Below, in pieces: positions 265-62,395 of a stretch of 63,966 nucleotides of DNA (its first letter is position 1; each line of letters starts with the position of its first letter). The stretch covers positions 1 to 63,966 of the forward strand of contig JAOZFG010000018.1 in assembly GCA_027491435.1 (NCBI GenBank). The letters are read 5' to 3'. The stretch comes from Thermoproteota archaeon (lineage in GTDB: Archaea > Korarchaeota > Korarchaeia > Korarchaeales > Korarchaeaceae). The position numbers and the translations under genes are program-made. The notes under the pieces were generated by a model. The model worked only from the letters and a program-made list of their open reading frames with translations. It searched no databases and had not been told where the DNA came from.

Positions 265-2679
265 ATGAAAGCCATAAAGGCAAGCACGTTAGTTTTCATG
301 CTAATATTTCTACTTTCTCACTTAACGTTTAACGTTCAATCAGCAAATACCGACAATATTGTGAAGGCTATATCGGAGCCTGTCAAAAAAGTTGTTAACT
401 TCCCCACTTACGAATCACCGTCGGAGATATACGGCGGAGGGTATGGATACGTTGGAGGCGTCCTCTACGTTTACAAGAGCTCGTTTACCTTCGTAGCAAT
501 ACCCGACATAGGTATGAACACTTATGCCTCTCTAATACTCGGGGAGGGTCTAAAAGTAAAAGAATTTATAGATTTAGGAAACCTCGAAGGAGCAGCTAAG
601 AACAAGTTGGCTTCGATGACCTCTTGGCTCTTGGATAACTCCGTAGGTGGGTTATGGAGGTCGGAAACCAGCGGAAGTCTGCCGGATGTCTACCTGAGTG
701 CTTTGGTTATCAAATCAATAGCTTACTCTTACGAACAGGGCTTACTACCTAAAGAGAAGGAAGGGGATTTTGTCAGGTCAGTATCAGCGCTAATTTCACT
801 TCAAAGCCAGGGAGGCGGCTGGGGGGCTGTTCCTGGGTCTAACATAGCTGAGCAAAAGGAACCCGACCCTGAAGTTACAGCTCAAGTTCTCTCGACTCTA
901 GTAGCTGTCAAATCAGCCGGGTTAAATATCCCAGGCTTGGATACAGCCATAAATAAGGCAATATCTTTCTTAGAGGGGACGGCCAAGAAGGGCGGAGGGA
1001 AAACGTATTGGTCTATACCTAGGAGAAACACTTTTCAGATCACAGCAGAAATCTCTAATTCATTAGCTGATGCCCTAATATTAGGATATAAGCTTAGAGA
1101 TAATAGCCTAATAAAAGGTATAATCAATTACTTAGAACCTAAGGCTAAAGAGAGTTATTCTGCCGGGACTTACGACATAGCCACAGCTGAGGCGGTCACA
1201 GCGTTAGCCAAGCTCTCAGCTTTAGGATATATAGATACAGAGGCGTTCGTTCAGTCGTGGCTTCCCATGATTGAGGACTTCGCCTTATCAATTAGACCAG
1301 ATGGTTTGTTTGGGAATGAGCCGTTTATATGGCTGAGATTGTACACTACAATGCTTCACTTGAACGTGTTCAGCTACTGGGTCAGAATGACGTGCCTTTC
1401 CATGAACGCCTATTTAGTGGGCGGATACGGTGACTATAATCCTCCGGTAGTTATAGAGGGGACCGGGATAACGCTGAAGATAAGCTTAAAGAATAAGGTG
1501 AGCTCAAAGCTAAATTTGGGAATTTCTGTGGGGGTAGATCCGCCCGCTAAGATCAGCTCTACAGCCAATAAAGCCATAACTTTATCTCCGGGTAAGTCGA
1601 CTGAGCTCTCAATAAAGATATTAGTACCGGATAAGATTCCCAATAAAAAGAACGTTACAGTGTACCTATATGTGAAAGAAGGAAACCCATTGAAGCCATT
1701 ACTCGCCAAAACGCTCAACTTCTTAGCGGTTAGGAATCCAGAGATAATAATCAAAGCGAAAACAATAAATCCAAACAGGGTTTCACTTAAGGAGCCGGTT
1801 ACCATAACACTAAAAATCCAAAATACAGGAGATTTACCCCTATCTAATGTTAAGATTACTGAAATATTAAACAAAGGGTTTACGGTGGTACCAGGAGGGA
1901 ATGGGACCGTGCTTTTATCATCAAGCGAAAGTTTAGGCTCTTACGTTTTATCGTCTCCCATAGGTCCAGGTGAAATAATAACGTTCTCTTACAAGGTGCA
2001 GGCTGAGGACGTTCCTCCAGGACCTCAACAGGTTTCCAGAACCGTCCTAATGTATACGGATGCCAGAGGGGAGACCCATAACAAGACCGCAGACGTATCG
2101 ATAACGGTACTGAGGCCGCTAGTATCTCTAACCTACAATGCCACGGAGATGGTAATTGAATGGGATTCCTCAAAGACTGTGGTAGCTTCTCTCTCAAATT
2201 CAGGTAATGAAGACGCTACAGATTTATCTATTGGCATATCCCCAGGCGAGGGCATAAGGCTCAATCTAACAGCGCTACCCGAAGGTGTTTACATAAAACC
2301 AAACCCCGATGGCTCCTTTACATTAAAAATAAAGAGGATAAAGGCAGGAGAGAGCTTGAGCCTTCCAATATCTGTTAAAGCCACTAATTTCTACCCATCT
2401 TTAGATTTAGGGACATATCTCTCCATAAAGTATGAGTATAAAGATTCTAAAGGGAGGAACATGCCCTCGTTCTCTGGTTCAGGACTGGTAAAACTCAGGG
2501 TCGTCGCTTCCCAAAGCTTTTTCATAATAATAGCCTTGATAACGGCTGTGGTAATAGTACTTGTGGCGATAAGGGTCTATAACAGAAGAAAAATTGCTAG
2601 AAGAGAGGAGAGAAGAGCATCACCCTTTATAAGGCAACCGCCTAAGAAGAGGAGAGGGAGGCGTCCGTTTGGATCGTAA
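265..2679 (+). CDS. Membrane-anchored surface protein with alpha/alpha-toroid and Ig-like repeats
   Basis: This 804-residue protein is probably exported and anchored on the outer face of the membrane. Residues 1-27 look like a Sec signal peptide. Residues about 90-345 resemble the prenyltransferase/squalene-cyclase type alpha/alpha toroid, with repeats such as GGGWGAV near 183-189. Three beta-rich stretches (about 395-490, 495-615, 620-745) look like CARDB/DUF11 Ig-like domains with NTGDLPLSNV-type motifs. A single membrane helix (751-771) is followed by a very basic tail of about 30 residues, which predicts an inside C-terminus. The TATA box and start ATG agree. It is more AT-rich than the ribosomal genes in this window. 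The next gene overlaps it, so the two are probably co-transcribed. Catalytic activity cannot be inferred; binding or scaffolding is equally possible. Confidence 0.75.
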   Translation: MKAIKASTLVFMLIFLLSHLTFNVQSANTDNIVKAISEPVKKVVNFPTYESPSEIYGGGYGYVGGVLYVYKSSFTFVAIPDIGMNTYASLILGEGLKVKEFIDLGNLEGAAKNKLASMTSWLLDNSVGGLWRSETSGSLPDVYLSALVIKSIAYSYEQGLLPKEKEGDFVRSVSALISLQSQGGGWGAVPGSNIAEQKEPDPEVTAQVLSTLVAVKSAGLNIPGLDTAINKAISFLEGTAKKGGGKTYWSIPRRNTFQITAEISNSLADALILGYKLRDNSLIKGIINYLEPKAKESYSAGTYDIATAEAVTALAKLSALGYIDTEAFVQSWLPMIEDFALSIRPDGLFGNEPFIWLRLYTTMLHLNVFSYWVRMTCLSMNAYLVGGYGDYNPPVVIEGTGITLKISLKNKVSSKLNLGISVGVDPPAKISSTANKAITLSPGKSTELSIKILVPDKIPNKKNVTVYLYVKEGNPLKPLLAKTLNFLAVRNPEIIIKAKTINPNRVSLKEPVTITLKIQNTGDLPLSNVKITEILNKGFTVVPGGNGTVLLSSSESLGSYVLSSPIGPGEIITFSYKVQAEDVPPGPQQVSRTVLMYTDARGETHNKTADVSITVLRPLVSLTYNATEMVIEWDSSKTVVASLSNSGNEDATDLSIGISPGEGIRLNLTALPEGVYIKPNPDGSFTLKIKRIKAGESLSLPISVKATNFYPSLDLGTYLSIKYEYKDSKGRNMPSFSGSGLVKLRVVASQSFFIIIALITAVVIVLVAIRVYNRRKIARREERRASPFIRQPPKKRRGRRPFGS

Positions 2680-3283
2680 GAAGTTCATTGCATACACTTC
2701 TATTCCCATACTAGCCTTCGTGCTCATTATTCTACTTTATTCATCAGTGGTTATCCATGAAGGCAATACGCCAGTCTACAGAACCAAGAAATGGAAAATT
2801 GGCATCATGTACCCGGAAAGCGCGACCGGCGTGGAGGGCTCAGGGGCGCTGGGGATATCCACCTACACCATTAGCTTAACCCTGAGCTTCTTCTCAGGCG
2901 GTCAGCTAAATGAGACCAATCTCTTGGCCGGACCAATAGGAAGCACTGAAGGGGTTAATTCTTCTATCGTACTTAAGCCCTCTAAGACCCCCAAGGTTAT
3001 AGTGTACGCACATAACAGGACTGTGATCTTAGAAGGCGACTATAAATACGGCCTTTTCGCAGCAGTTGACAGGTTTCTATTGCTATTTTCAGGTAAGTAC
3101 GCCATCGGCCTCGACACATCTAGGAGGTACCTAACGATAATACATCCGGATAAGGGGACGAAGTACGGAATCCCCTGGTTAGGCGGGCTCTCTATAGAGG
3201 AAGTGAGGGGAGTCCCCGTAGAATATCATGGAACCGACCAGGCAGATGTAATGGACCTCATACTAGGACCTTTTACTCCATAA
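2669..3283 (+). CDS. Small membrane-anchored extracellular protein, unknown function
   Basis: This 204-residue protein starts at TTG 2669, overlapping the end of the upstream toroid gene by 11 nt, so the two are probably translationally coupled. Residues about 9-28 form one hydrophobic helix after a short basic N-terminus (MDRKK), which fits an N-terminal signal anchor with the rest outside. The body has a glycine-rich segment, a NxTVILEGDYKYGLFAAVDRF-like stretch near 115-140 and N-glycosylation sequons. I do not recognise the family. It is vaguely like the substrate-free nucleotide-fold segments of archaeal S-layer proteins, but that is weak. It may act with the toroid protein. Confidence 0.6.
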   Translation: MDRKKFIAYTSIPILAFVLIILLYSSVVIHEGNTPVYRTKKWKIGIMYPESATGVEGSGALGISTYTISLTLSFFSGGQLNETNLLAGPIGSTEGVNSSIVLKPSKTPKVIVYAHNRTVILEGDYKYGLFAAVDRFLLLFSGKYAIGLDTSRRYLTIIHPDKGTKYGIPWLGGLSIEEVRGVPVEYHGTDQADVMDLILGPFTP

Positions 3284-3284
3284 A

Positions 3285-3359
3285 CGGGCCCGGGGGGACT
3301 TGAACCCCCGACCTGCGGCTTAGAAGGCCGCCGCTCTATCCTTGCTGAGCTACGGGCCC
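3285..3359 (-). tRNA. tRNA-Arg (anticodon TCT)
   Basis: On the minus strand this folds into a full cloverleaf. The acceptor is GGGCCCG/CGGGCCC, the D stem GCTC/GAGC, the anticodon stem GCGGC/GCCGC with loop CTTCTAA (anticodon TCT), the variable loop AGGTC and the T arm GGGGG-TTCAAGT-CCCCC. The discriminator is G. CCA is not encoded and no intron is seen. It faces away from the surface-protein gene at 3423 and appears to share its AT box. Confidence 0.95.
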
Positions 3360-3380
3360 CTATTCGTCTTCAGCCGAATA

Positions 3381-3392
3381 CCTTAATAATAC
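3381..3392. promoter_or_regulatory. AT box shared by tRNA-Arg and the divergent surface gene
   Basis: CCTTAATAATAC lies about 27 nt before the tRNA-Arg 5' end on the minus strand and about 35 nt before ATG 3423 on the plus strand. It is the only TATA-like element in the 63 nt between them, so it may serve both directions. Confidence 0.45.
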
Positions 3393-3422
3393 TACCTCCG
3401 CTCAAGGTCATTGGGAGCGCTT

Positions 3423-5642
3423 ATGGAAATTAAAAGGTTTCCAATCCTGTTGATGTTGATACTAATAACAACGTTCTTCTTCACGTCGACGAGTTATGAG
3501 ACCGCTCAGCAGACCTTAAAGTACGATTGGTTAGATCTCTCAATGAAGAATGGTACCACTTACGAACTTCCGGGCGGTTATCAGCTACAAGCATACATAT
3601 CTGAGTTTGGCGGTCATGGGACGCATGCTGTTAAAGCGTCAATATATAAAGAGGGTAAAGTTTGCGTCCCTTGGGTGGCAGTTCCGGTTGAAAAAGTAGG
3701 TAACCTTGAAACTAGAAAGCTAATAGAAGTTAAAGAAGATTGCTCTGTCTCCGGGAAAAGGTTATACTATGTATACATAAAGGGAGATTTATCTAAGGGG
3801 GCTGGAGAAGCTATTAAGGATACCATATACTTCGATATACTGAACTCAATATATTCACCAGAAGTTAACTTAACTGCCACGACCACCTTCCCTAAGAGGA
3901 GGGATTTTGGGGAAAAAGAGTCTTTCACCTTCACTATACCGTTCTCCATTAAAAACAATGCAGAGAACATAAGGGTGAACTGGGTGAGGATCGTCGCTGC
4001 TTGGCATAGGGTAGGAGGCGTTGGTTCCATAAACCTAACCAACGTGGAGGTAACTGGAGCCCCGCCCCCTTCACCATCGAGCTGGGCAGGGGGTTCACTA
4101 AACCTCACCCTCCCAGGACTAGACCCAGGTGAGTCGAGGCAGATAAAGTTAACCTTCTTAGCCGGGCCGAATTCGAAAGATTTCGGTAACTACACCATAA
4201 ATGTGATGATAATACATCCAGCTGTGTATGAGTTTATAGGCTTGGATCCGGATAGAGGTGTAAAACAGTTTAAGTATAACCCAAACAATACAGAGAGCGA
4301 CTCCTTCCAGTTCGTGGTATTTACAGGGACTAGATACGCTGGCCACACGGGGAAACCAGAGTTAACTATACTGCTGACTAGGCCCACTGGCGACGTTACC
4401 GTGGATCCCGGCTCAACAGTGACCTTTGACTTCAGGGTCAAGAACAACGGCAACGACTACGCCTACAACGTCACCCTGGACGCCAAAGTGAAGCCCGACG
4501 CTCAAATCACCATAGTAAAGCCTGACAACGTGGCTGGAAACCCCTTCCCAATAGTTGTGCCGGTTGACGTTCCACCAGGTGGTCTCACGGAGCCCATACA
4601 GTTTAGAGTCAAGCTCCCAGAGGACAGCGAGGGCAAGATTTACAGGGTGAACATCACGGCCTCGTACTTCACCATAAGGGGCGAGTACAGGGAGACCAGC
4701 AAGTCGGTGCTGATAACCGTTAGGGAGATAGGGGAGAGCAAGGTGACCATAAAAAAGAAGGTGAGCCCCACCTCTATATCGGTTAACGGCACAATACAAG
4801 TAGTGGTGACTGTCTCTAACAACGGAACCGCTCCGGCCTCAAATGTGGTGATAAAGGACTACTACCCTAAGGAATACTTCAGACTAGTATCAGGGGAGAC
4901 CTCCAAGAAGATATCTTCCCTAGCTCCAGGAGATTCTGTCTCAATAGTTTACAAACTTAAGGCCATTAAAGAAGGGATACCCATACTCCCTCCAGCTTCG
5001 GTAACTTACGTTGATCCTAAGACAGGCCCGAAGGGGCCCATAACCTCTGGCGAGAGCAGCGTAGTTATCACGGTAATAAAGCCCAAGCTCTGGGCTAAGG
5101 TCGAGGATCAACCTCCAAACGTCACCGTCAAGAACTCTCTGGTCACCTTCTCAATATACGTGAAGAACGATGGAAACGGGGCAGCCAAGGACGTCTCCCT
5201 CTACATGGAGCTCTCACCCGGTTATTACATGGTGACTCCTCCAACAGTGGAGAAGAGTGAAGGTACGATATGCGACCAGCCTAAGTGGGAGCCCACCAAA
5301 GACAAAGTTAAGGTATCGGTGTCTTGCGACAAAGTAGACCCTCAGGGGTGGATTAAGCTCTCTTTAACGTTAAGGCCCCAATCAGAGGGCAAACAATGGC
5401 TTACTGTGAAAAGCCTGACTTACAAGTCTGCTGACGGAACTTCGAAGTTCCACGTGCCAGTTTCCTATTACTCATACGAAACCGTGGTAGTAACTCCCTT
5501 TGAACAGAGGATGTTCTCTCTTGTGCTCTTCTCTTTCTCAGTGATACTTGTGGGGCTCTTCGTGATAGCCCTTACAAGAGGTTTCGGGTTCACAGCCTCT
5601 CCCAGGAGGAGAAGGGTTGGCAGGTTAGGGGCCTTTGAATAG
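3423..5642 (+). CDS. Large surface protein with CARDB/DUF11-like beta repeats
   Basis: This protein of about 739 residues has a signal peptide ([20 protein letters not shown] then STSYE), several Ig-like beta domains and a membrane helix near the C-terminus (about 690-720, [20 protein letters not shown]), then a short basic tail (SPRRRRVGR). The middle repeats contain [12 protein letters not shown]-like and [10 protein letters not shown]-like motifs typical of CARDB/DUF11 domains, plus many NxT/NxS sequons. The frame also opens at TTG 3411, but ATG 3423 directly precedes the signal peptide and fits the TATA box. Architecture matches the second half of the toroid protein at 265, so both may belong to one cell-surface system. 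No catalytic domain is visible. Confidence 0.72.
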
Positions 5643-5683
5643 CCCTCCTCACCTTTTTGCTTCACCTCCCTTGGGATGGCAAC

Positions 5684-5693
5684 ATTAAAATAA
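5684..5693 (+). promoter_or_regulatory. TATA box of the P1 stalk protein gene
   Basis: ATTAAAATAA lies about 35-40 nt before ATG 5726 in the gap after the surface-protein gene. A GGGTGGTG ribosome binding site follows at about 5711-5718. Confidence 0.5.
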
Positions 5694-5725
5694 TCGGATA
5701 TTTCATGATAGGGTGGTGTATCGAC

Positions 5726-6055
5726 ATGGGAATGGAGTACATATATGCAGCCCTAATGCTTCACGAGGCCGGTAAGAAGATAGAGGAGGATCTGCTGACT
5801 CAGGTGCTGAAGGCGGCGGGCATAGAGCCCGATCCAGCTAAGGTTAAACAACTCGTCAGCTCGCTCTCGGGGGTTAACATAGACGAGATAATAAGCCAGG
5901 CCACAACCATGCCCGTGGCTGCAGCTCCTGCCGCAGCTCCTGCTGCCGAGGAGAAGGCTGCCGAAGAGAAGAAGGAAGAGGAAGAAGAAGAGAAGAAGAA
6001 GGAGGAAGAAGAAGAGGAGGCTGCCCTAGCGGGCCTTGGAGCCCTCTTCGGTTAA
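5726..6055 (+). CDS. rpl12: Ribosomal protein P1 (archaeal L12, stalk)
   Basis: This acidic stalk protein of the large ribosomal subunit recruits translation GTPases. The protein (about 109 residues) begins [17 protein letters not shown], the archaeal P1 N-terminus, then has the dimerisation helices, an Ala/Pro hinge ([12 protein letters not shown]) and a very charged Glu/Lys tail ending GLGALFG, the conserved GTPase-binding end. Start ATG 5726 is chosen for its GGGTGGTG site 8 nt upstream; ATG 5732 is an alternative. Upstream in-frame codons back to 5657 are not conserved P1 sequence. The usual neighbours uL1, uL10 and uL11 are not beside it; alaS follows. Confidence 0.93.
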
Positions 6056-6064
6056 ACCCCCTCC

Positions 6065-6075
6065 TGTTTTTATTA
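6065..6075 (+). promoter_or_regulatory. TATA box of alaS
   Basis: GTTTTTATTAG lies about 25-30 nt before ATG 6098, so the alaS mRNA is probably almost leaderless and separate from the P1 gene. Confidence 0.5.
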
Positions 6076-6097
6076 GTGTCAACCCCCTTTCAAGAGG

Positions 6098-8821
6098 ATG
6101 GACATGTCCTTACAGGGACCTGTGGAAATACAATTCCTGAAAGAGCGGGGATACGTCAGGAAGAGATGTCCCATCTGCGGAGAGTACTTTTGGACCCTTG
6201 ACCCAGACCGGGAAACTTGTGGAGAGGCTCCCTGCGAGCCTTACTCATTCTTAGGGAAGGCTATATCGGAGAAGAGCATAGAACAGGTCAGGGAAGACTT
6301 TCTCAGTTTCATGGAGAAGAGGGGTCATACTAGGATAAACAGGTACCCAGTAATAGCTAGGTGGAGGGACGACTTATTCTTAACCAGTGCCTCCATAGTT
6401 GACTTCCAGCCCTTCATCACCTCAGGCCTGGTGCCGCCTCCAGCAAATCCCTTGACGATATCACAACCCTGCATAAGGCTGAAGGACGTGGACAAAGTAG
6501 GCCCTACCATGGGCCGACACCTGACTATTTTTGAGATGATGGCCCATCATGCCTTTAACTCGAAGGAGAGGTGGGTGTACTGGAAAGAAAGGACTGTAGA
6601 GCTGTTTCATGAATATGCTACCGAAGTCTTGGGTATACCGGAGGAGGAGATAATATACAAGGAGGGCATATGGGAGGGAGGGGGGAACGCAGGGCCAGAC
6701 TTGGAGCCCATTGTAAGGGGGCTAGAGATAGCGACCTTAGTCTTTATGGAATACAAGATGGTCAACGGAAAGTACGTTCCAATGGACACCAAAGTGGTAG
6801 ACACCGGCTATGGCCTAGAGCGTATAACTTGGCTGCTAAACGGATCCCCGACTGGCTTCCATGCAGTGTACGGAAAGTTAGTTGACGACTTCATGAGTTT
6901 GTTCGGAGTGGGTAGAGTAGATGATAAATTTTTAATGGAATACACGAAGGTATCCTCTCTGCTACGTGAGTTAGAGAAAGGGAAGAGCGTAAACTCCCTC
7001 AGGAGGGAGATATCTAAGAGAACTGGGATTCCTCTTGAGCTAATAGAGGATAAGATAGTTCCTTTAGAGCTTACCTTCGCCGTGCTGGACCACACTAAGG
7101 CCCTGGCCTTCATGCTCGCGGATGGCTTGGTTCCCTCTAACGTGAATGAAGGTTACTTGGGCAGGCTGTTGATCAGGAGAACGCTTAGGATATTGAAACA
7201 GTTAGGAGTTGAGATAAGCCTCTCAGAGCTGGTTTCAAAGCAAGTGGATTACTGGTCGTCTAAGGGCTTTCCTGAGCTTAAGGAGTCCATAGACAGGATA
7301 ACTGATATGTTGGACATAGAGCAGAAGAGGTTCGAGGAGTTGTTAAGGAGGGGAAGGCAGCTAGTTAGGGACATCCTCCGAAGCAAGAAGAGGGTCAGTG
7401 AGGAGGACCTGGTGGTCTTGTATGAGTCCCACGGGCTAACCCCAGAGTTCGTAGCCCAGGTGGCTAAAGAGGAAGGATACGAGGTTAAAGTTCCTGACAA
7501 CTTCTTTGAGCTCATCGCCGCTAAACACGAGTCCAAGCCTCCTAAACCACCAGAGCTGCCAGATTACGTGGATGAACTAATGAAATATTCACCCACCAAA
7601 CCGCTTTATTATCAGAATCCATACCTTCTCAATGCGAGCGCTCAAGTAGTTGGGGTAATCAGGGGGAACGGGGTCATCCTGGACTCCACAGTCTTCTACC
7701 CCGAGGGAGGGGGCCAGCCGTCGGATGTGGGGTACATCAGCTGGGACGGTGGTTCCGCTTACGTTGAAAGGGTTGAGAAGTACAAGGGAGTTATAGTACA
7801 CTGGGTCAAAGGCGAAGCTCCACCTGTGGGTACCAAGGTGTCATGTCAAGTGGATCGGATCAGAAGGCTTAACAGGATGAGGCACCACTCAGCCACTCAC
7901 GTGATCCTAGAGGCTGCCAAGAGGGTTCTAGGCAGTCACGTCTGGCAATGGGGCGCCCAGAAAGGGGATGAGGTAAGTAGGCTGGATATAACCCATTACA
8001 AACCGATAACCCCTGACGAGCTCAGGAGGATAGAGGAGATTGCCAACGAAGCAGTGATGAGAAACATAAGGGTTAACACCTTCTGGCTGACCAGGACTGA
8101 GGCTGAGAAAAGGTACGGGTTTGAGATCTACCAAGGAGGGGTGGTGCCCGATCCAACCCTCAGGATCGTCGAGATAGAGGGATACAACGTTCAAGCATGT
8201 GGCGGCACGCATGTCATAAGGACTGGTGACATAGGGTACATAAAGATCTGGAGAGCTAAAAGGATCCAAGACGGTGTAATAAGGCTAGAGTTTTCCGCCG
8301 GGATGCCTGCTGTTAGGAAAATGATCGGGATGCATGAAGAGTTAAAAAAGGTAAGCTCTTCCTTAGGAGTTCCCGAGGAAAGGCTGTCAGACTCCATTGC
8401 TGAGCTGAAAGAAGAGCTTAAGAAGCTTAAGAGCAAGCTGAACGAGCTGAAAGGCTTTGAGTTGAGGTCCTTGATAAGCTCCGCGTTGGAAAAGGCGGAA
8501 GTCGTCTCAGGGATAAAGCTGGCTAAAGTACTAGTGAGCGATGATTATCAGCTGGACGAAGTCGTAAAGAAGGCGGACAAGCTACTGGAAGAATCCACGG
8601 CCGTAGTAATCATTAGGGATTCGGGCAACAGGTACAACGTGGCCTTGCTTACGTCCGAAGACATTAAGGGGAGAGTTAAAGCGGGCTCCCTGATAAGGGA
8701 GATCACTAAGTCGCTGGGAGGGGGTGGCGGAGGGAACGATAAGCTAGGAAGGGGGGCTATACCACGGGAGAAACTGGAGGAGTTCTTGACAAAGTTAAGG
8801 GATTCCCTGATCAAGAGATAG
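6098..8821 (+). CDS. alaS: Alanyl-tRNA synthetase
   Basis: AlaS charges tRNA-Ala and edits mischarged Ser and Gly. The 907-residue protein has the archaeal form. An N-terminal Cys cluster (CPICGEYFW...CGEAPC) precedes the class II core with the TSASIVDFQP region. The editing domain has the HHSATHV (HxxxH) motif near residue 598 and the CGGTHV Cys/His pair near 705, and a coiled-coil/DHHA1-type C-terminal domain ends with a Gly-rich loop (GGGGGGND) used in tRNA contact. Length is normal for archaeal AlaS. ATG 6098 fits the TATA box; a second ATG lies two codons later. The following DUF434 gene may start inside the last codons. Confidence 0.96.
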   Translation: MDMSLQGPVEIQFLKERGYVRKRCPICGEYFWTLDPDRETCGEAPCEPYSFLGKAISEKSIEQVREDFLSFMEKRGHTRINRYPVIARWRDDLFLTSASIVDFQPFITSGLVPPPANPLTISQPCIRLKDVDKVGPTMGRHLTIFEMMAHHAFNSKERWVYWKERTVELFHEYATEVLGIPEEEIIYKEGIWEGGGNAGPDLEPIVRGLEIATLVFMEYKMVNGKYVPMDTKVVDTGYGLERITWLLNGSPTGFHAVYGKLVDDFMSLFGVGRVDDKFLMEYTKVSSLLRELEKGKSVNSLRREISKRTGIPLELIEDKIVPLELTFAVLDHTKALAFMLADGLVPSNVNEGYLGRLLIRRTLRILKQLGVEISLSELVSKQVDYWSSKGFPELKESIDRITDMLDIEQKRFEELLRRGRQLVRDILRSKKRVSEEDLVVLYESHGLTPEFVAQVAKEEGYEVKVPDNFFELIAAKHESKPPKPPELPDYVDELMKYSPTKPLYYQNPYLLNASAQVVGVIRGNGVILDSTVFYPEGGGQPSDVGYISWDGGSAYVERVEKYKGVIVHWVKGEAPPVGTKVSCQVDRIRRLNRMRHHSATHVILEAAKRVLGSHVWQWGAQKGDEVSRLDITHYKPITPDELRRIEEIANEAVMRNIRVNTFWLTRTEAEKRYGFEIYQGGVVPDPTLRIVEIEGYNVQACGGTHVIRTGDIGYIKIWRAKRIQDGVIRLEFSAGMPAVRKMIGMHEELKKVSSSLGVPEERLSDSIAELKEELKKLKSKLNELKGFELRSLISSALEKAEVVSGIKLAKVLVSDDYQLDEVVKKADKLLEESTAVVIIRDSGNRYNVALLTSEDIKGRVKAGSLIREITKSLGGGGGGNDKLGRGAIPREKLEEFLTKLRDSLIKR

Positions 8822-41646: not shown

Positions 41647-42216
41647 ATGTGGAGGTACGTCCCTGGGAGGAGGAAGCCCCACGACAGTTGGGCTTACGTG
41701 GTCTATGTTGACAGATTTAAGAGAAGCGTTCATGTCTTAGGGGATAGATACTTTATCCTCATGGAGTTCTCCCTGAGGCCTAACGTGGAGTTGATGGACG
41801 GGGATAAGATATACGTTGGTAAGGGACAGAGGAAGGAGGTGAGCAGGTTTCTAAGATACCTGTCTTACGACGACCTGCCATCTACTGCCAAGTTCGGGTT
41901 AGAACAGTTGGTTACTAAGATATTAAAGGAAAATGAGAAGTTCTTCGTGGAGTTCTTCAACGAGAGCGTCCCTATAACTCCAAGGCTGCATCAGTTAGAG
42001 CTCCTCCCGGGGGTAGGCAAGAAAACTATGATGAAGATACTTGAGGAGAGACAGAAGAAGAGGTTTGAAAGTTATGAAGACGTTGAGAGAAGGACGGGGC
42101 TTAAAGATCCTATTAGGTCCCTAGCTCAGAGGGTTATAGAGGAGCTATCCGGTAACGAGAAATACTACATTTTGGTGGCCCCAAAGAAGCTACTGGAGGA
42201 AGAGGTTACGTGGTAA
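41647..42216 (+). CDS. DUF655 nucleic-acid-binding protein
   Basis: This 189-residue archaeal protein combines an S1/OB-like N-terminal part (DSWAYVVYVDRFKRSVHVLGDRYFILMEF) with a helix-hairpin-helix (LELLPGVGKKTMMKILEERQ). It is conserved next to eL21 and rpoF and often precedes ksgA; here ksgA is absent and isopentenyl phosphate kinase converges, overlapping by 11 nt. It probably binds RNA in ribosome biogenesis, but no activity is proven. Confidence 0.9.
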   Translation: MWRYVPGRRKPHDSWAYVVYVDRFKRSVHVLGDRYFILMEFSLRPNVELMDGDKIYVGKGQRKEVSRFLRYLSYDDLPSTAKFGLEQLVTKILKENEKFFVEFFNESVPITPRLHQLELLPGVGKKTMMKILEERQKKRFESYEDVERRTGLKDPIRSLAQRVIEELSGNEKYYILVAPKKLLEEEVTW

Positions 42217-42952
42217 CTTTAGTGCCTTTCTCCCCCCTCAAGGCCCTTATCAGATCACCTCTGGATCTATAATCCGTTATGATTACGTCTACTCCTAGCT
42301 CGGCTAATTTTAAGGCCCTCTCAACTTTACCAAGCATCCCCCCAGTCACGTCTATCCCAGCATCCCCCTTAAAGATCTTGGAATCCTTGCTAACTTCCCT
42401 TAGCACGACACCTCTCTCGTCTAAAACGCCGGGAGCGTCTGTGAGAAACACGGCCTTTGATATGGTATTTGAGAGCACTAAGGGGATCTCATCTGCCGAC
42501 ACTATTTTCGCGCCTTCCTTGTATGAGAAGACCACGTCCCCATGAGAGACGGGAACGAACCCCCAGGACAGCATAGTGATGATCTGTTCAGTAAAAGCTT
42601 TGTGGCTACCGTCCCAGGTCATAAATCCTCTGGGAGACACGCCGACGGCAGGGATTCCGTTAAGTATTAGCCTGCCGACTACAGCGTTGTTAAGTATCCT
42701 GACCATATGTAGCACTTCAGATGCCTCTACAAGCTTGCCGTTTAACCCCCTTTGAAGCCCATACTCCTTCACCGGTCTGTGACCGTAGGTTCCAGCTCCA
42801 TGGGCCAACACGATCCTGTAATTGTTCATTATTTCCTTCATATCCTCGGAAATTCCATCAATTACTTCAAAATTAATCTTAAAATCACCTAATTTCTTAT
42901 CGGTAATCAGGGATCCGCCGATCTTTATGAACACCACATCCAAGAGCATCAC
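42206..42952 (-). CDS. ipk: Isopentenyl phosphate kinase
   Basis: IPK converts isopentenyl phosphate to IPP in the archaeal mevalonate pathway. The 248-residue amino-acid-kinase fold has FIKIGGSLITDKK, LAHGAGTYGHRP with the catalytic His, HGDVVFSYKEGA and the C-terminal DVTGGMLGKVE motif. It starts at GTG 42952 or ATG 42949 after GGGTG. The DUF655 gene converges on it; the PIN-domain ATPase is divergent, 32 nt away. Confidence 0.93.
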   Translation of the reverse strand: MMLLDVVFIKIGGSLITDKKLGDFKINFEVIDGISEDMKEIMNNYRIVLAHGAGTYGHRPVKEYGLQRGLNGKLVEASEVLHMVRILNNAVVGRLILNGIPAVGVSPRGFMTWDGSHKAFTEQIITMLSWGFVPVSHGDVVFSYKEGAKIVSADEIPLVLSNTISKAVFLTDAPGVLDERGVVLREVSKDSKIFKGDAGIDVTGGMLGKVERALKLAELGVDVIITDYRSRGDLIRALRGEKGTKVTT

Positions 42953-42984
42953 CCTTATATGGTGGTGTTCTTTGAAAGGAACTG

Positions 42985-44559
42985 ATGAATAAAATAGTCA
43001 TACTAAGTCAGGATGTACTAGTGAGGTCTCTCCTCAGGCTTAACGATAACCTAGAGAAGATAAGAGGATCTAAGGTGGTTATTCCCTCCTGGGTGCTCTC
43101 AGAACTGGAAGGGAAGTCGGCTAAAGGGGACAGATTCGCCTTAGGAGGGCTAAACGAGATTGTTTGGCTCAGGAAGATCGCGGAGCAAGGAGTCATAGAG
43201 TCGGTGGAGGTAAGGGAGTCTAAAGATAAGGGGGTGGAATCCCTAGCTAATCTGGCCAGCTCTATGGGTGGGAAAGTGGTTACAGGAGACAGGGTCACAG
43301 CCCTTGCCCTTATGGCCAGGGGAGTTGAAGTCCTCTACATAGGGCCATTAGGGGAGGGTCTCTCCATATCCAAATACTTCGATGAGTACACCATGAGCGT
43401 TCATCTTAAGGAAGGAGCCCCTCCCATGGCCAAAAGGGGAACTCCTGGAAACTTCGAGCTCGTTAAACTCTCGAAAGAACCCCTTTCAGAGTACGAGCTG
43501 AGGTCCATGGCCTATGAGATACTAGAAAAGGCCAAGACTGACCCGAACGCTTTCGTGGAAATTGAGCACAAAGACGCTTACATAATACAGATAGGGAGCT
43601 TTAGGATTTTATTGGCCTTTCCTCCCTTCTCTGACGGGTTAGAGATCACTGTAGTTAGGCCCCTGGTTAAGGTAACCCTGGACGACTACAACCTGAGCGA
43701 AAAATTGAAGGAGAGGCTTAGGGAAAGGGCCGAGGGCATAGTGATAGCTGGACCGCCCGGCGCTGGGAAAACTACCTTCGCTAGTGCCCTAGCCGAGTTC
43801 TATAGGAGCAGGGGCAGAATCGTCAAGACTCTGGAGTCACCCAGGGATCTGCAGGTGGGTCCGGAGATAACTCAGTACGGCAGGCTAAACGGCTCATTTG
43901 AGAATACAGCAGACCTATTGCTCCTAGTTAGACCTGACTACGTTATATTCGATGAAATGAGGAAGACTCAGGACTTCAAGATATTCGTGGACATGAGGCT
44001 GGCAGGGGTGGGCATGATAGGAGTGGTCCATTGCGGCTTTCCAATAGAGGCAATACAGAGATTTATAGGCAGGGTGGACTTGGGCGTGCTTCCTCACGTG
44101 GTCGACACCCTGATATTCATAAAGGACGGTAGGGTTCAGAAGGTATACAGCCTCAAGATCGTGGTGAAGATGCCGTCGGGCATGAAAGACGTTTCGTTGG
44201 CTAGGCCAGTTGTCCTGGTCAAGGACTTCGAAAGCGGCAACGTGGAGTATGAGATATACACCTTCGGGGATGAGATAGTGGTCATGCCTCTCAAGAAGCC
44301 CTCTCAGGAGGAGGCCATAACCGTGGAGGTCCCTGTCAAGTACAGGCTCAGGAAGAGGAAGCACACGATAATCCTAGAATTAGGGCCAGAGATGGCCAAC
44401 ACAGAGGTAACCCTCTACTCGGGTTCAAGGGAGCTAGCCACTCTCACCACGGATTCCAAGGGGAGGATAGCCTTAGCCAGGGCCAGTCCTCTAGGAAGGA
44501 GGGTAGTTGAGGCGGCTAAATCTGATAACCTGAGGATCTTGCCCTCTAAAGGCGATTGA
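42985..44559 (+). CDS. PIN-domain ATPase (COG1855, PilT/VapC-type)
   Basis: This 524-residue archaeal protein joins an N-terminal PIN nuclease domain (KIVILSQDVLVRSLLRLNDN to GKVVTGDRVTALALMARG, with Asp residues) to a PilT/secretion-type ATPase (Walker A GPPGAGKTTF near 257; VIFDEMRKTQDFKIF) and a C-terminal KH-like region (ITVEVPVKYRLRKRKHTIILE). It is conserved in archaea, but its RNA or protein target is unknown. A CCTTATATGG box precedes it. It converges on nadM, overlapping by 14 nt. Confidence 0.88.
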   Translation: MNKIVILSQDVLVRSLLRLNDNLEKIRGSKVVIPSWVLSELEGKSAKGDRFALGGLNEIVWLRKIAEQGVIESVEVRESKDKGVESLANLASSMGGKVVTGDRVTALALMARGVEVLYIGPLGEGLSISKYFDEYTMSVHLKEGAPPMAKRGTPGNFELVKLSKEPLSEYELRSMAYEILEKAKTDPNAFVEIEHKDAYIIQIGSFRILLAFPPFSDGLEITVVRPLVKVTLDDYNLSEKLKERLRERAEGIVIAGPPGAGKTTFASALAEFYRSRGRIVKTLESPRDLQVGPEITQYGRLNGSFENTADLLLLVRPDYVIFDEMRKTQDFKIFVDMRLAGVGMIGVVHCGFPIEAIQRFIGRVDLGVLPHVVDTLIFIKDGRVQKVYSLKIVVKMPSGMKDVSLARPVVLVKDFESGNVEYEIYTFGDEIVVMPLKKPSQEEAITVEVPVKYRLRKRKHTIILELGPEMANTEVTLYSGSRELATLTTDSKGRIALARASPLGRRVVEAAKSDNLRILPSKGD

Positions 44560-45100
44560 TCTTCTTTTGCTTATAGTATATCTTTTTTATCCTGCTTTCC
44601 AGGTCTATCTCAATGAGGAAATCCCTCACCGAGGGGGGTACCAAGAGCTTCCAGTGATCATCTCCCTTCAACATTAGCTCCCTTATCTTGGTGGCCTCGT
44701 AGAGGTCCCTCCTGTGGAAGGGTATACCCTCCACCTTAAGCCCAACGGCCCTCAAATCCTTTACCGTCTCTGGGTCGTTTGAGAAGGCTATGTCCACCCT
44801 AGGCACCCTGTCCAAGACAAGCTCACCCCACACTTCCTCGGGAGACTCGGTATCAGGCACTGAGGAGAGGTAAATCCTCTTCATGTTGAACCCCTCCCTC
44901 CTTAAAGCCCTGACTATCATCTCCATTCTCTCATCGCAGGACATGGGGTTTCTAGGCTCACAGCAATACTGCGAGCTCCCTATAGCGATAACGAGCTCGT
45001 CGGTCTTGGACAGAGCGTATTTAAAAGCGTGGAGGTGTCCGTAATGCAGCGGTTGAAACCTGCCAACTATCAGTGACCTGGTAGGCCTTTTCACCCTCAC
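44546..45100 (-). CDS. nadM: Nicotinamide-nucleotide adenylyltransferase NadM
   Basis: NadM makes NAD+ from NMN and ATP. The 184-residue protein has the nucleotidyltransferase motif GRFQPLHYGHL and the late YEATKIRELMLKGDDHWKLLVPPSV segment, with FSNDPETVKDL, as in archaeal NadM. It is the last gene after Nudix, separated by 33 nt, and probably part of the cofactor block. Confidence 0.9.
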   Translation of the reverse strand: MRVKRPTRSLIVGRFQPLHYGHLHAFKYALSKTDELVIAIGSSQYCCEPRNPMSCDERMEMIVRALRREGFNMKRIYLSSVPDTESPEEVWGELVLDRVPRVDIAFSNDPETVKDLRAVGLKVEGIPFHRRDLYEATKIRELMLKGDDHWKLLVPPSVRDFLIEIDLESRIKKIYYKQKKINRL

Positions 45101-45133
45101 ACCCTTGCAAGCCGTACTGGGTTCGAAAAATAA

Positions 45134-45880
45134 TTAACTTTCACTGTCTTCCGGACTCTCCCCCTCGATTATCTCGGTAATTTCATCAACTATAAGGTCC
45201 TCTGGTAGGTCTTCCTCAAGCAGCTGGTACTTATCATAATCCTGCTTTCTAATATCAAGCTCCCTTCCTCGCAAACTTATTGCTTCCCTGGAAGGGTGCA
45301 TCTCCACCTCCACCATAGCCCTAGCCAAGTTCTCCGCTGTGGCTTCGTGCAGTATTATTATGGAGCCGTTCCTAAGCTTCAAAATGACTCTCTTGTGTTT
45401 GTGTCCCCTGGGCACCCCTATTAGTACCCTATCCACGTCCCTATTCCTTATACTTATCCTGAAACCAGAGGCGAGGGACTCTATGAGCTTTCTAGTGGAA
45501 TCGGCAAGCTTTAACTTGAGGGCGTGATTTAACTCCACCCACCTGACCTCTTTCACATCTCCCCCAGGTCTAAGCCTGCCTCCAACCTGTTTACACAGCA
45601 GGTCCACAAGCACGTAGTGGTACTTAACCTTCCCATCAGGGTCCCTCACCAGGACTGTGTCCGCGTAGATGGGGTAGAGGGGCACCACCTCCAAGCCCGT
45701 CTCCTCGAGCATTTCCCTTCTAACCGCCTCTTCAAGAGTCTCACCTAGCTCTACTAGCCCGCCGGGCACGGCCCAATAACCCCTACCTGGCTCGGTCTTT
45801 CTCCTGGCCAGGAGGATTTTGCCGTTCCTAAGGAGAACCCCTCCCACCCCTGGCAGGGGATGATTTGGGTACTCCCTCAC
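45134..45880 (-). CDS. Nudix hydrolase with a C-terminal extension
   Basis: The N-terminal half (about 1-135) is a Nudix domain with the catalytic GLVELGETLEEAVRREMLEETGLEV motif. The C-terminal half of about 110 residues (RISIRNRDVDRVLIGVPRGH and onwards, ending acidic) is not typical of Nudix enzymes and I do not recognise it. Total length is 248 residues. The gene lies 4 nt after the type II PanK gene and before nadM, so nucleotide-linked cofactors (ADP-ribose, NADH or CoA) are reasonable substrates, but specificity cannot be read. Confidence 0.87.
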   Translation of the reverse strand: MREYPNHPLPGVGGVLLRNGKILLARRKTEPGRGYWAVPGGLVELGETLEEAVRREMLEETGLEVVPLYPIYADTVLVRDPDGKVKYHYVLVDLLCKQVGGRLRPGGDVKEVRWVELNHALKLKLADSTRKLIESLASGFRISIRNRDVDRVLIGVPRGHKHKRVILKLRNGSIIILHEATAENLARAMVEVEMHPSREAISLRGRELDIRKQDYDKYQLLEEDLPEDLIVDEITEIIEGESPEDSES

Positions 45881-45884
45881 CTTA

Positions 45885-46745
45885 TCACCCTACCAGAGAT
45901 GATTTATCTGTCAGCAACCTGAGGGCAGCCCCTATGGCAGTGGCGAACTGAGGATCCTTTGGTACTGTAGCTTTCCCTCCGAACAACCTTATGGGCTTGA
46001 GTATGGCCCTTAACACGGGCTCATGTGTGACCAGACCTCCAACTAGTATTATCCTATCATGTAACCCCACGGATTTGGCAGCGAAGAAAGACACCGTCCC
46101 TATAACTTGCCCGACCATGTTCACTAGGCCAGCAGCGACGTCCTCCGGCGAAACAACATCACCAACTTTGCCGAAGTTGGAGGCCGTCACGTCGGGCGTT
46201 AAAAGACCGATGGGACCACCTACTATATCGCCCACGGTAAGGTCTACGTTCCTCGGATCTCCTTTAGAGGCGAGCTCTATTATTGAGTTAACGTTGGTCC
46301 TCCTGAGGAGCAATCTCCCTAAGCCGGATAAGGTGCCCGCACCGACGCCGGTTCCTCCCAAGTGTCTAACCAGAGTCCTGTTACCGTCTCGCCTCACCTC
46401 AACTATAGCGGTTCCGGTACCTGCGCTGACTACCACCCCCTCGTTAGTTCCCGATAGAAAGAGACCTCCCACGCCTACAGCTTCTATCTCATCTATTTCC
46501 ACGACGTCCAACCCCAGAATCTTAGGTGGTAGGGGCTTAGTCTTCCCTCCACTAGAAGCTATGGCTTCAACTTCAGACATCAAAATGCCTAACTCGGATA
46601 GTAGCTTGCCTATAGCTCCTGCAGCTGCAGCTAACGGATCTGATGCCACCACGACCGTTTTACCGTATATCTTAGACTCAGAGATTAGCACGGCCTTAGT
46701 GGTGGTTCCTCCCATGTCAAGGCCCACTATCAGCATTTCAACCAC
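45885..46745 (-). CDS. coaW: Type II pantothenate kinase (PanK II / Fumble family)
   Basis: PanK phosphorylates pantothenate, the first step from vitamin B5 to CoA. The 286-residue protein has the ASKHA phosphate-1 motif GLDMGGTTTKAV (D10), the PanK II marker VSAGTGTAIVEV, HLGGTGVGAGTLSGLGRLLL, DLTVGDIVGGPIGLL and DVTASNFG, close to eukaryotic and Staphylococcus PanK II. Most archaea instead use pantoate kinase plus phosphopantothenate synthetase. It lies in an operon 3 nt after an ECF S component, which suggests pantothenate uptake. Confidence 0.88.
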   Translation of the reverse strand: MVEMLIVGLDMGGTTTKAVLISESKIYGKTVVVASDPLAAAAGAIGKLLSELGILMSEVEAIASSGGKTKPLPPKILGLDVVEIDEIEAVGVGGLFLSGTNEGVVVSAGTGTAIVEVRRDGNRTLVRHLGGTGVGAGTLSGLGRLLLRRTNVNSIIELASKGDPRNVDLTVGDIVGGPIGLLTPDVTASNFGKVGDVVSPEDVAAGLVNMVGQVIGTVSFFAAKSVGLHDRIILVGGLVTHEPVLRAILKPIRLFGGKATVPKDPQFATAIGAALRLLTDKSSLVG

Positions 46746-46748
46746 TTC

Positions 46749-47300
46749 CTAACGGGTAGAGGCCTCCTGTAACTTAGCCCTCATAACCTTACTAACTATG
46801 GGGGGGACCAGCACGTAAGCGAATGGGAGCTCCCAGGCGAAGGTCGTGAACCCTATTATCATTGCAGCCTCAAAGCTAAGTGGGGTAACCTCCTTCTGGA
46901 ATGGTAGGGGAAAGGCCTGGCTCCAGGCCAAGAGCCCCAAACCTATTATCACGTGACCGACGAGCAAGCCTAGGGTGACTGCGATAAGATACCTCCTGAA
47001 GGAGTACTTCTCCTTACCCGCTAGCTCGCCCACTATGTAGAACCCTATGAAGTTAGAGGTCACTCCCACGCTTAGGCTTAAGAGGGCGTTCCCGTGAGTC
47101 ATCATGTCTGAGATAAATATCCCTATAGCCGCTGACAACCCGCCCACTAAGCCACCGTACAAACACGAAATCGTTGCAGGAACGACTACAGCAGGCCAAA
47201 ACCTGACTCCATAGAAAGTCAGTCCTAGATAGGTCAGATAGCCGACAATAGCGTATAGGGCTCCCCCTATTGAGGAAATCACAAGCTCTTTTGTGCTCAT
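46749..47300 (-). CDS. ECF-type transporter substrate-binding (S) component, possibly for pantothenate
   Basis: This 183-residue protein has about six membrane helices, with YAIVGYLTYLGLTFYGVRFWP and the small-residue helix GGLVGGLSAAIGIFISDMMTHG typical of ECF S components. Energising ATPase and T subunits are not in this window and may be shared modules elsewhere. Its tight linkage to PanK II points to pantothenate as substrate; this is inference. A TATA-like ACATAAATAATAGG (minus strand, about 47324-47337) lies upstream of ATG 47300. Confidence 0.75.
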   Translation of the reverse strand: MSTKELVISSIGGALYAIVGYLTYLGLTFYGVRFWPAVVVPATISCLYGGLVGGLSAAIGIFISDMMTHGNALLSLSVGVTSNFIGFYIVGELAGKEKYSFRRYLIAVTLGLLVGHVIIGLGLLAWSQAFPLPFQKEVTPLSFEAAMIIGFTTFAWELPFAYVLVPPIVSKVMRAKLQEASTR

Positions 47301-62293: not shown

Positions 62294-62395
62294 GCCGGGG
62301 TGCCCTAGCCTGGTAGGGGGCTGGCCTGCTAAGCCCTGCGTGGAAAGCCAGTGGCCCATCGGGCCGCGAGGGTTCAAATCCCTCCCCCGGCGCCA
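62294..62395 (+). tRNA. tRNA-Ser (anticodon GCT) with a 14-nt intron
   Basis: This class II cloverleaf has the acceptor GCCGGGG/CCCCGGC and T arm GAGGG-TTCAAAT-CCCTC. The anticodon stem CTGGC/GCCAG closes only if 14 nt (62332-62345, AGCCCTGCGTGGAA) are removed after position 37, the canonical archaeal site, giving loop CTGCTAA with anticodon GCT. CCA is encoded (62393-62395). The body is nearly the same as tRNA-Ser(GGA) at 33401. Confidence 0.9.

What the first reader, a model, noticed from the sequence alone, without database searches (positions are those of the whole stretch)
44546..47300. Type II pantothenate kinase with an ECF importer in a cofactor-salvage block
Archaea normally make 4'-phosphopantothenate through pantoate kinase and phosphopantothenate synthetase. 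Here a PanK II (Fumble/CoaW type) gene sits 3 nt after an ECF S component and is followed by Nudix (4 nt) and nadM (33 nt), all on the minus strand. This suggests uptake and phosphorylation of pantothenate rather than synthesis, plus NAD maintenance. It would explain cofactor dependence and may be a lateral gain.
Basis: partly seen in the sequence, partly recalled or inferred. Interest (0 to 1): 0.6.

Follow-up and report, generated by a model that had tools for sequence, protein, structure and literature searches.

The report
Archaeal pantetheine salvage kinase and importer
This korarchaeal archaeon has lost almost all of the pathway for making coenzyme A and keeps only an importer gene, a kinase and the last two enzymes, so it most likely lives on pantetheine, a coenzyme A breakdown product from its neighbours, rather than on vitamin B5 as first proposed.

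Summary
In detail: an ECF S component, a PanK II-like kinase, a Nudix hydrolase and nadM lie in a tight minus-strand run at 44546-47300 of a korarchaeal genome. But CoaB/CoaC, which turn phosphopantothenate into phosphopantetheine, are also missing here and CoaB in 23 of 24 genomes of the family, while PPAT and dephospho-CoA kinase are kept. Phosphorylating pantothenate would be a dead end; phosphorylating pantetheine bypasses the gap (the 'pantetheine shunt', known from bifidobacteria). The kinase belongs to a PanK II subfamily in which the substrate-positioning Arg is His. Outside Korarchaeia, 31 of 40 genomes with this subfamily also lack CoaB, against 0 of 14 controls. The S component adjoins the kinase in 35 of 41 archaeal loci; PPAT adjoins in eight. 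Most likely: a pantetheine importer plus pantetheine kinase, inherited across Korarchaeia, not a recent lateral gain. Weaknesses: no biochemistry; 9 of 12 CoaBC-less bacteria keep CoaX; a few archaea have this kinase with CoaBC and no other known source of phosphopantothenate, so it may accept both substrates.

The parts
46749..47300 (-). ECF transporter S component (183 aa), proposed pantetheine/pantethine (or pantothenate) binding subunit
   Evidence: PF12822 1.8e-13; AlphaFold2 pLDDT 91, S-component fold, best PDB matches RibU/ThiT/FolT; adjacent to PanK in 35/41 archaeal loci
45885..46745 (-). PanK II-like (Fumble/CoaW superfamily) kinase, His-type subfamily, proposed pantetheine kinase; conserved start probably ATG at 46736
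   Evidence: PF03630 7.3e-23; PRK13317 215 bits, below the 234 cut-off; nearest structure S. aureus CoaW 4nb4 E 2e-17; catalytic Glu86 kept, Arg replaced by His128
46479..46493 (-). Codons 85-89 (DEIEA) with catalytic Glu86 of the kinase
   Evidence: E invariant in 22/22 and 81/81
46362..46367 (-). Codons of Arg127-His128; His128 stands where canonical PanK II has the substrate-positioning Arg (S. aureus R113)
   Evidence: alignment with 4nb4; H in 81/81
45134..45880 (-). Nudix hydrolase (248 aa); closest NCBIfam models are Nudix domains fused to NMN adenylyltransferases; C-terminal part unassigned
   Evidence: PF00293 3.2e-24; top hits PRK05379
44546..45100 (-). NadM-type nicotinamide-nucleotide adenylyltransferase
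   Evidence: NF002243 150.4 bits, cut-off 127

Best explanation
The S component and the kinase form a pantetheine (or pantethine) salvage module. The S component, driven by the shared EcfA-EcfT module encoded elsewhere, takes up pantetheine or a disulfide of it. The kinase phosphorylates it to 4'-phosphopantetheine, bypassing the absent CoaB/CoaC. PPAT (G000:C16) and archaeal DPCK (G000:C5) complete coenzyme A. Shown here: gene content, conserved adjacency, fold, absence of PanB/PoK/PPS/CoaB/CoaC. Inferred: substrate of the transporter, substrate of the kinase, and dependence on other organisms for pantetheine. The pair was probably inherited through Korarchaeia, with CoaBC lost on the way to the window's family while S-PanK was kept.
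For: CoaB (PF04127) absent from G000 and 22 further genomes of its 24-genome family but found in 14/14 controls and in deeper korarchaea G001-G004; PF02441 (CoaC) absent from G000. PPS, PanB and PoK absent from G000. PPAT above cut-off in G000, DPCK in 27/29 including G000. EcfT in all 29, with a partial EcfA beside it in G000. S adjacent to PanK through the family. Outside Korarchaeia 31/40 genomes with the same kinase subfamily lack CoaB (19/21 archaea; all sampled spirochaetes and clostridia) against 0/14 controls, with at least 6 state changes on the kinase tree. PPAT, the next enzyme after the missing steps, adjoins in 8 bathyarchaeal/theionarchaeal loci. The 7 CoaB+ bacteria sampled all have a separate CoaX. 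Precedent: bifidobacteria lacking PPCS/PPCDC need pantethine or CoA and cannot use pantothenate (PMC8660834); 91 gut strains with PanK+CoaD+CoaE and no CoaBC were assigned the pantetheine shunt (PMC6593275); type I PanK phosphorylates pantetheine (PMC11487621).
Against: No assay. 9 of 12 CoaB-less bacteria keep CoaX, which would have no outlet under a pure pantetheine shunt. Korarchaea G002-G004 have CoaB and this kinase with no PPS found, so there it may be the pantothenate kinase. The fold search does not resolve the S component's substrate. In G001 the S component sits with PoK and PPS, compatible with other pantoyl substrates. Most genomes compared are metagenome bins, and the His-type set was collected partly by a pattern that contains the His.
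Confidence: 0.64

Rival explanations
1. One reading: pantothenate is imported and phosphorylated to 4'-phosphopantothenate, and an unrecognised, non-homologous pair of enzymes replaces CoaB and CoaC.
For: His-type kinase occurs with CoaB and without PPS in G002-G004, implying pantothenate kinase activity there. CoaX kept in 9/12 CoaB-less bacteria suggests phosphopantothenate may still be used. Archaeal CoA enzymes have repeatedly proved non-homologous to bacterial ones (PMC6650551).
Against: Needs two unknown enzymes, whereas loss of one fused gene plus a known kinase activity suffices. No conserved unknown gene accompanies S-PanK across lineages. PPAT rather than a new gene adjoins in Bathyarchaeota.
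Confidence: 0.2
2. The kinase is a dual pantothenate/pantetheine kinase from an ancestor that used pantothenate; in the window's family only the pantetheine activity is useful, and the S component still carries both compounds.
For: CoaB+ and CoaB- korarchaea share related kinases (44-51% identity to the window's in the CoaB+ ones), with the S-PanK pair in two of the four. Type I PanKs accept both substrates (PMC11487621).
Against: Substrate-contact residues (Arg to His, mostly Ser to Ala) differ from characterised type II enzymes in all members, suggesting an already changed pocket. It overlaps the best explanation and differs in specificity only.
Confidence: 0.1
3. The kinase acts on something unrelated to coenzyme A (another ASKHA small-molecule kinase), and coenzyme A or a late precursor is imported by another route.
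For: The protein misses NCBI's pantothenate-kinase cut-off and also matches BadF-type and activase models. The His-for-Arg change touches a pantothenate contact (PMC8366970).
Against: Neighbourhood with CoA genes (PPAT in Bathyarchaeota/Theionarchaea, CoaBC 0.5 kb away in G001), co-occurrence with CoaB absence, catalytic Glu kept, nearest fold S. aureus PanK II. Kept PPAT and DPCK argue against import of whole CoA.
Confidence: 0.06

Closest known systems
Type II pantothenate kinase CoaW of Staphylococcus aureus (PDB 4nb4, 2ews) and eukaryotic PANK
   Same: Fold, Fumble domain, catalytic Glu, GTGT and GG-T/I-G motifs
   Different: Arg113 (CoaW numbering) replaced by His; the Ser of GTGTS usually Ala; below the curated cut-off; archaeal; found mostly where CoaBC is missing
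Pantetheine shunt ('Apn' variant) of Bifidobacterium and some Clostridiales (PMC6593275, PMC8660834)
   Same: PanK, PPAT and DPCK without CoaBC and without pantothenate synthesis
   Different: Archaeal; uses a His-type PanK II, archaeal PPAT and the archaeal DPCK family; has a linked ECF S component, whereas in bacteria the importer is mostly unknown
ECF pantothenate transporters PanT / PanU
   Same: ECF S component using a shared EcfA-EcfT module, linked to pantothenate-type metabolism
   Different: No sequence match in the PDB; fold nearer RibU/ThiT/FolT than PanT; substrate untested
Archaeal PoK-PPS pathway (Thermococcus kodakarensis, PMC6650551)
   Same: Shares the last two steps, PPAT and DPCK
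   Different: PoK, PPS, PanB and CoaBC all absent from the window's genome

Membership tests
Type II pantothenate kinase (PanK II, Fumble/CoaW) | Pfam Fumble domain above gathering score | tested here: met
   81.7 vs 28.5 bits, profile positions 150-300 of 334
Type II pantothenate kinase (PanK II, Fumble/CoaW) | NCBIfam equivalog cut-off for type II pantothenate kinase | tested here: not met
   PRK13317 215.1 vs 234; TIGR00555 104.1 vs 247.6
Type II pantothenate kinase (PanK II, Fumble/CoaW) | ASKHA PanK II fold | tested here: met
   Foldseek top hits S. aureus PanK II, E 2e-17, TM 0.65-0.77
Type II pantothenate kinase (PanK II, Fumble/CoaW) | Catalytic Glu | tested here: met
   Glu86 invariant in 22/22 and 81/81
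Type II pantothenate kinase (PanK II, Fumble/CoaW) | Substrate-positioning Arg (HsPanK3 Arg207 / CoaW Arg113) | tested here: not met
   Aligned with CoaW it is His128, His in 81/81; role of the Arg from PMC8366970
Type II pantothenate kinase (PanK II, Fumble/CoaW) | Phosphorylates pantothenate | not testable with these tools
   needs enzyme assay
Pantetheine shunt (Apn variant) | CoaB and CoaC absent | tested here: met
   PF04127 and PF02441 not found in G000
Pantetheine shunt (Apn variant) | PanK, PPAT and DPCK present | tested here: met
Pantetheine shunt (Apn variant) | No pantothenate/phosphopantothenate synthesis | tested here: met
   PPS, PanB and PoK not found; PanC and PanE were not searched
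Pantetheine shunt (Apn variant) | Growth requires pantetheine/pantethine | not testable with these tools
ECF transporter (group II) | S component with EcfT and EcfA encoded elsewhere | tested here: met
   S component PF12822; EcfT and adjacent partial EcfA at the start of G000:C28
ECF pantothenate/pantetheine transporter | Substrate specificity | tested here: inconclusive
   fold matches several S components; linkage to CoA genes only
Archaeal PoK-PPS pathway | Pantoate kinase and phosphopantothenate synthetase | tested here: not met
NadM | NCBIfam archaeal NMN adenylyltransferase cut-off | tested here: met
   NF002243 150.4 vs 127; the stricter TIGR01527 not reached, 131.6 vs 181.2

The most novel reading that the evidence does not exclude
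The His-type PanK II family marks organisms with an unknown, non-CoaBC route from phosphopantothenate to phosphopantetheine in which this kinase takes part. That would explain why 9 of 12 CoaB-less bacteria still keep the pantothenate kinase CoaX and why His-type kinases track CoaB absence across several phyla.
Probability: 0.1. Interest if true: 0.85.

Novelty: new variant of a known kind. Interest (0 to 1): 0.6.

Why it matters
If true, most of an archaeal class, and many Bathyarchaeota, hot-spring Nitrososphaeria, spirochaetes and clostridia, depend on other microbes for pantetheine rather than vitamin B5. That changes how to design culture media for these mostly uncultured lineages: add pantethine, not only pantothenate. 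It would also give a sequence signature for pantetheine kinases and a candidate for a dedicated pantetheine ECF importer, a transporter that is unknown in most predicted bacterial pantetheine auxotrophs (known B5 transporters in only 12% of about 90, PMC6593275).

Tried and rejected
Recent lateral gain in this genome: rejected, 26/29 genomes of the group carry the kinase. A missed archaeal CoA pathway: rejected by PPS, PanB and PoK searches; the weak pantoate-kinase hits of 17-29 bits in relatives look like other GHMP kinases, and G000 has none. Reading specificity from the S component's fold: inconclusive, matches to RibU, ThiT, FolT, BioY and PanT. Sequence search of the S component against the PDB: nothing. 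Bacterial gene neighbours of the kinase as a guide: mixed (NTP transferase in three spirochaetes, MiaB-like, aminotransferase, PHP). Rooting the tree with S. aureus CoaW: its branch is too long to trust. The flavoprotein matches in G014 and G020 cover only the N-terminal two thirds of PF02441, with no CoaB in those genomes; I judged them not CoaC. G026, the one family member with CoaBC, PoK and PPS on a single contig, is a 2.9-Mb bin with 6% contamination; contamination or true retention is unresolved.
Full report
WHAT IS THERE. The window holds, on the minus strand, an ECF S component (47300-46749), a PanK II-like kinase (46745-45885), a Nudix hydrolase (45880-45134) and NadM (45100-44546), with gaps of 3, 4 and 33 nt. 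Relatives begin at the Met aligned with codon 4, so the start is probably ATG 46736.

WHOSE GENOME. G000 is a 1.64-Mb, 43-contig, 99.5%-complete genome. Its family contains Candidatus Methanodesulfokora washburnensis (contig NZ_RCOS01000108.1, 10784 bases, the length of G026:C159), which NCBI places in Korarchaeia. Absence of PoK and PPS from Korarchaeota was already noted in the literature (PMC6650551).

In G000 there is no PPS, no PanB and no pantoate kinase. PanC and PanE were not searched.

THE MISSING MIDDLE. CoaB (PF04127) is found in 14/14 control genomes and in the deeper korarchaea G001-G004, but not in G000 nor in 22 other members of its 24-genome family. PF02441, which covers CoaC, is absent from G000 and all but three family members; in two of those three the match is partial and the genome has no CoaB. 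PPAT and the archaeal dephospho-CoA kinase are kept. With these genes 4'-phosphopantothenate would be a dead end, while 4'-phosphopantetheine can become CoA. The economical reading is that the kinase phosphorylates pantetheine. This is the pantetheine shunt proposed for 91 gut strains (PMC6593275); in bifidobacteria lacking the same two enzymes, a requirement for pantethine or CoA and inability to use pantothenate was shown by experiment (PMC8660834).

CONSERVED MODULE. The S component is directly upstream of the kinase across the window's family and in two further korarchaeal families; G001 and G002 are exceptions. Over all archaeal loci found it adjoins the kinase in 35 of 41 (my count). In six Bathyarchaeota loci PPAT, the S component and the kinase are consecutive, the kinase usually divergent, and in two Theionarchaea PPAT precedes the kinase. 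In G001, which has PanB, PoK, PPS and CoaBC, the S component lies in a run with PoK and PPS, and the kinase lies about 0.5 kb from CoaBC. These neighbourhoods tie both genes to CoA metabolism. Nudix and NadM are neighbours only in close relatives. EcfT is present in all 29 genomes and in G000 follows a partial EcfA at a contig edge.

A DISTINCT KINASE SUBFAMILY. The model (pLDDT 86.7) is closest to S. aureus CoaW. The catalytic Glu86 is invariant. The Arg that positions pantothenate in PanK II (PMC8366970) aligns with His128, which is His in 81/81 sequences; the Ser contact is Ala in 69/81. One of the two search patterns contained the His, so its invariance is partly by selection. Among 40 non-korarchaeal genomes with this subfamily, 31 lack CoaB (19/21 archaea, 12/19 bacteria) against 0/14 controls, Fisher p = 2.5e-7 without phylogenetic correction; CoaB state changes at least 6 times on the kinase tree. 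All 7 CoaB-positive bacteria sampled also have CoaX, so the His-type kinase is not needed there for pantothenate.

WHAT DOES NOT FIT. Nine of the 12 CoaB-less bacteria keep CoaX. G002-G004 have CoaB, no PPS found, and this kinase. So the kinase may accept both substrates, or an unknown replacement for CoaBC may exist. The S component's fold does not tell its substrate. Most genomes compared are bins; but in the group of 17 korarchaeal genomes at least 90% complete and at most 5% contaminated, the 14 of the window's family all lack CoaB and the 3 outside it all have it, which makes assembly gaps an unlikely cause.

ORIGIN. The kinase is present throughout Korarchaeia. Its tree mixes korarchaeal with some Nitrososphaeria and Geothermarchaeota sequences, and the bacterial sequences group together with Theionarchaea. 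Old exchange between groups is likely, direction unknown because the root is not reliable. A recent gain in this genome is not supported.

VERDICT. Observation confirmed; interpretation partly supported, with the substrate most likely pantetheine rather than pantothenate. I found no paper in the searched library describing this for archaea, which is not proof that none exists.

Noticed in passing
L083 (G001:C215) 4616-6987: In a deep korarchaeon with PanB and CoaBC, an S component related to the window's (55% identity) sits in one strand run with pantoate kinase and PPS.
   Followed up: partly
L087 (G026:C15) 1035-3890: CoaBC, pantoate kinase and PPS on one contig of the Methanodesulfokora bin, the only such case in the family; contamination or true retention unresolved.
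   Followed up: partly
L109 3812-4738; L112 3900-4733: A second, divergent S component directly downstream of the kinase in two archaeal loci (one titled Brockarchaeota).
   Followed up: no
L133, L147, L151 upstream of the kinase: A nucleotidyltransferase (PF00483) precedes the His-type kinase in three spirochaetes that lack CoaB.
   Followed up: no
G050, G056-G058, G060, G064, G066-G068: Nine CoaB-less bacterial genomes keep type III PanK (CoaX), whose product would have no known use.
   Followed up: no
window 62294-62395 +: ARAGORN reports a tRNA-like gene with an odd four-base anticodon (aagc) just upstream of tRNA-Val; possibly an intron-containing or misread tRNA.
   Followed up: no
window 42206-44559: Next to the operon: archaeal isopentenyl phosphate kinase and a PINA-type (PRK13764) ATPase, ordinary archaeal genes.
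   Followed up: no
window 45134-45472: About 110 residues after the Nudix domain match no Pfam family.
   Followed up: no
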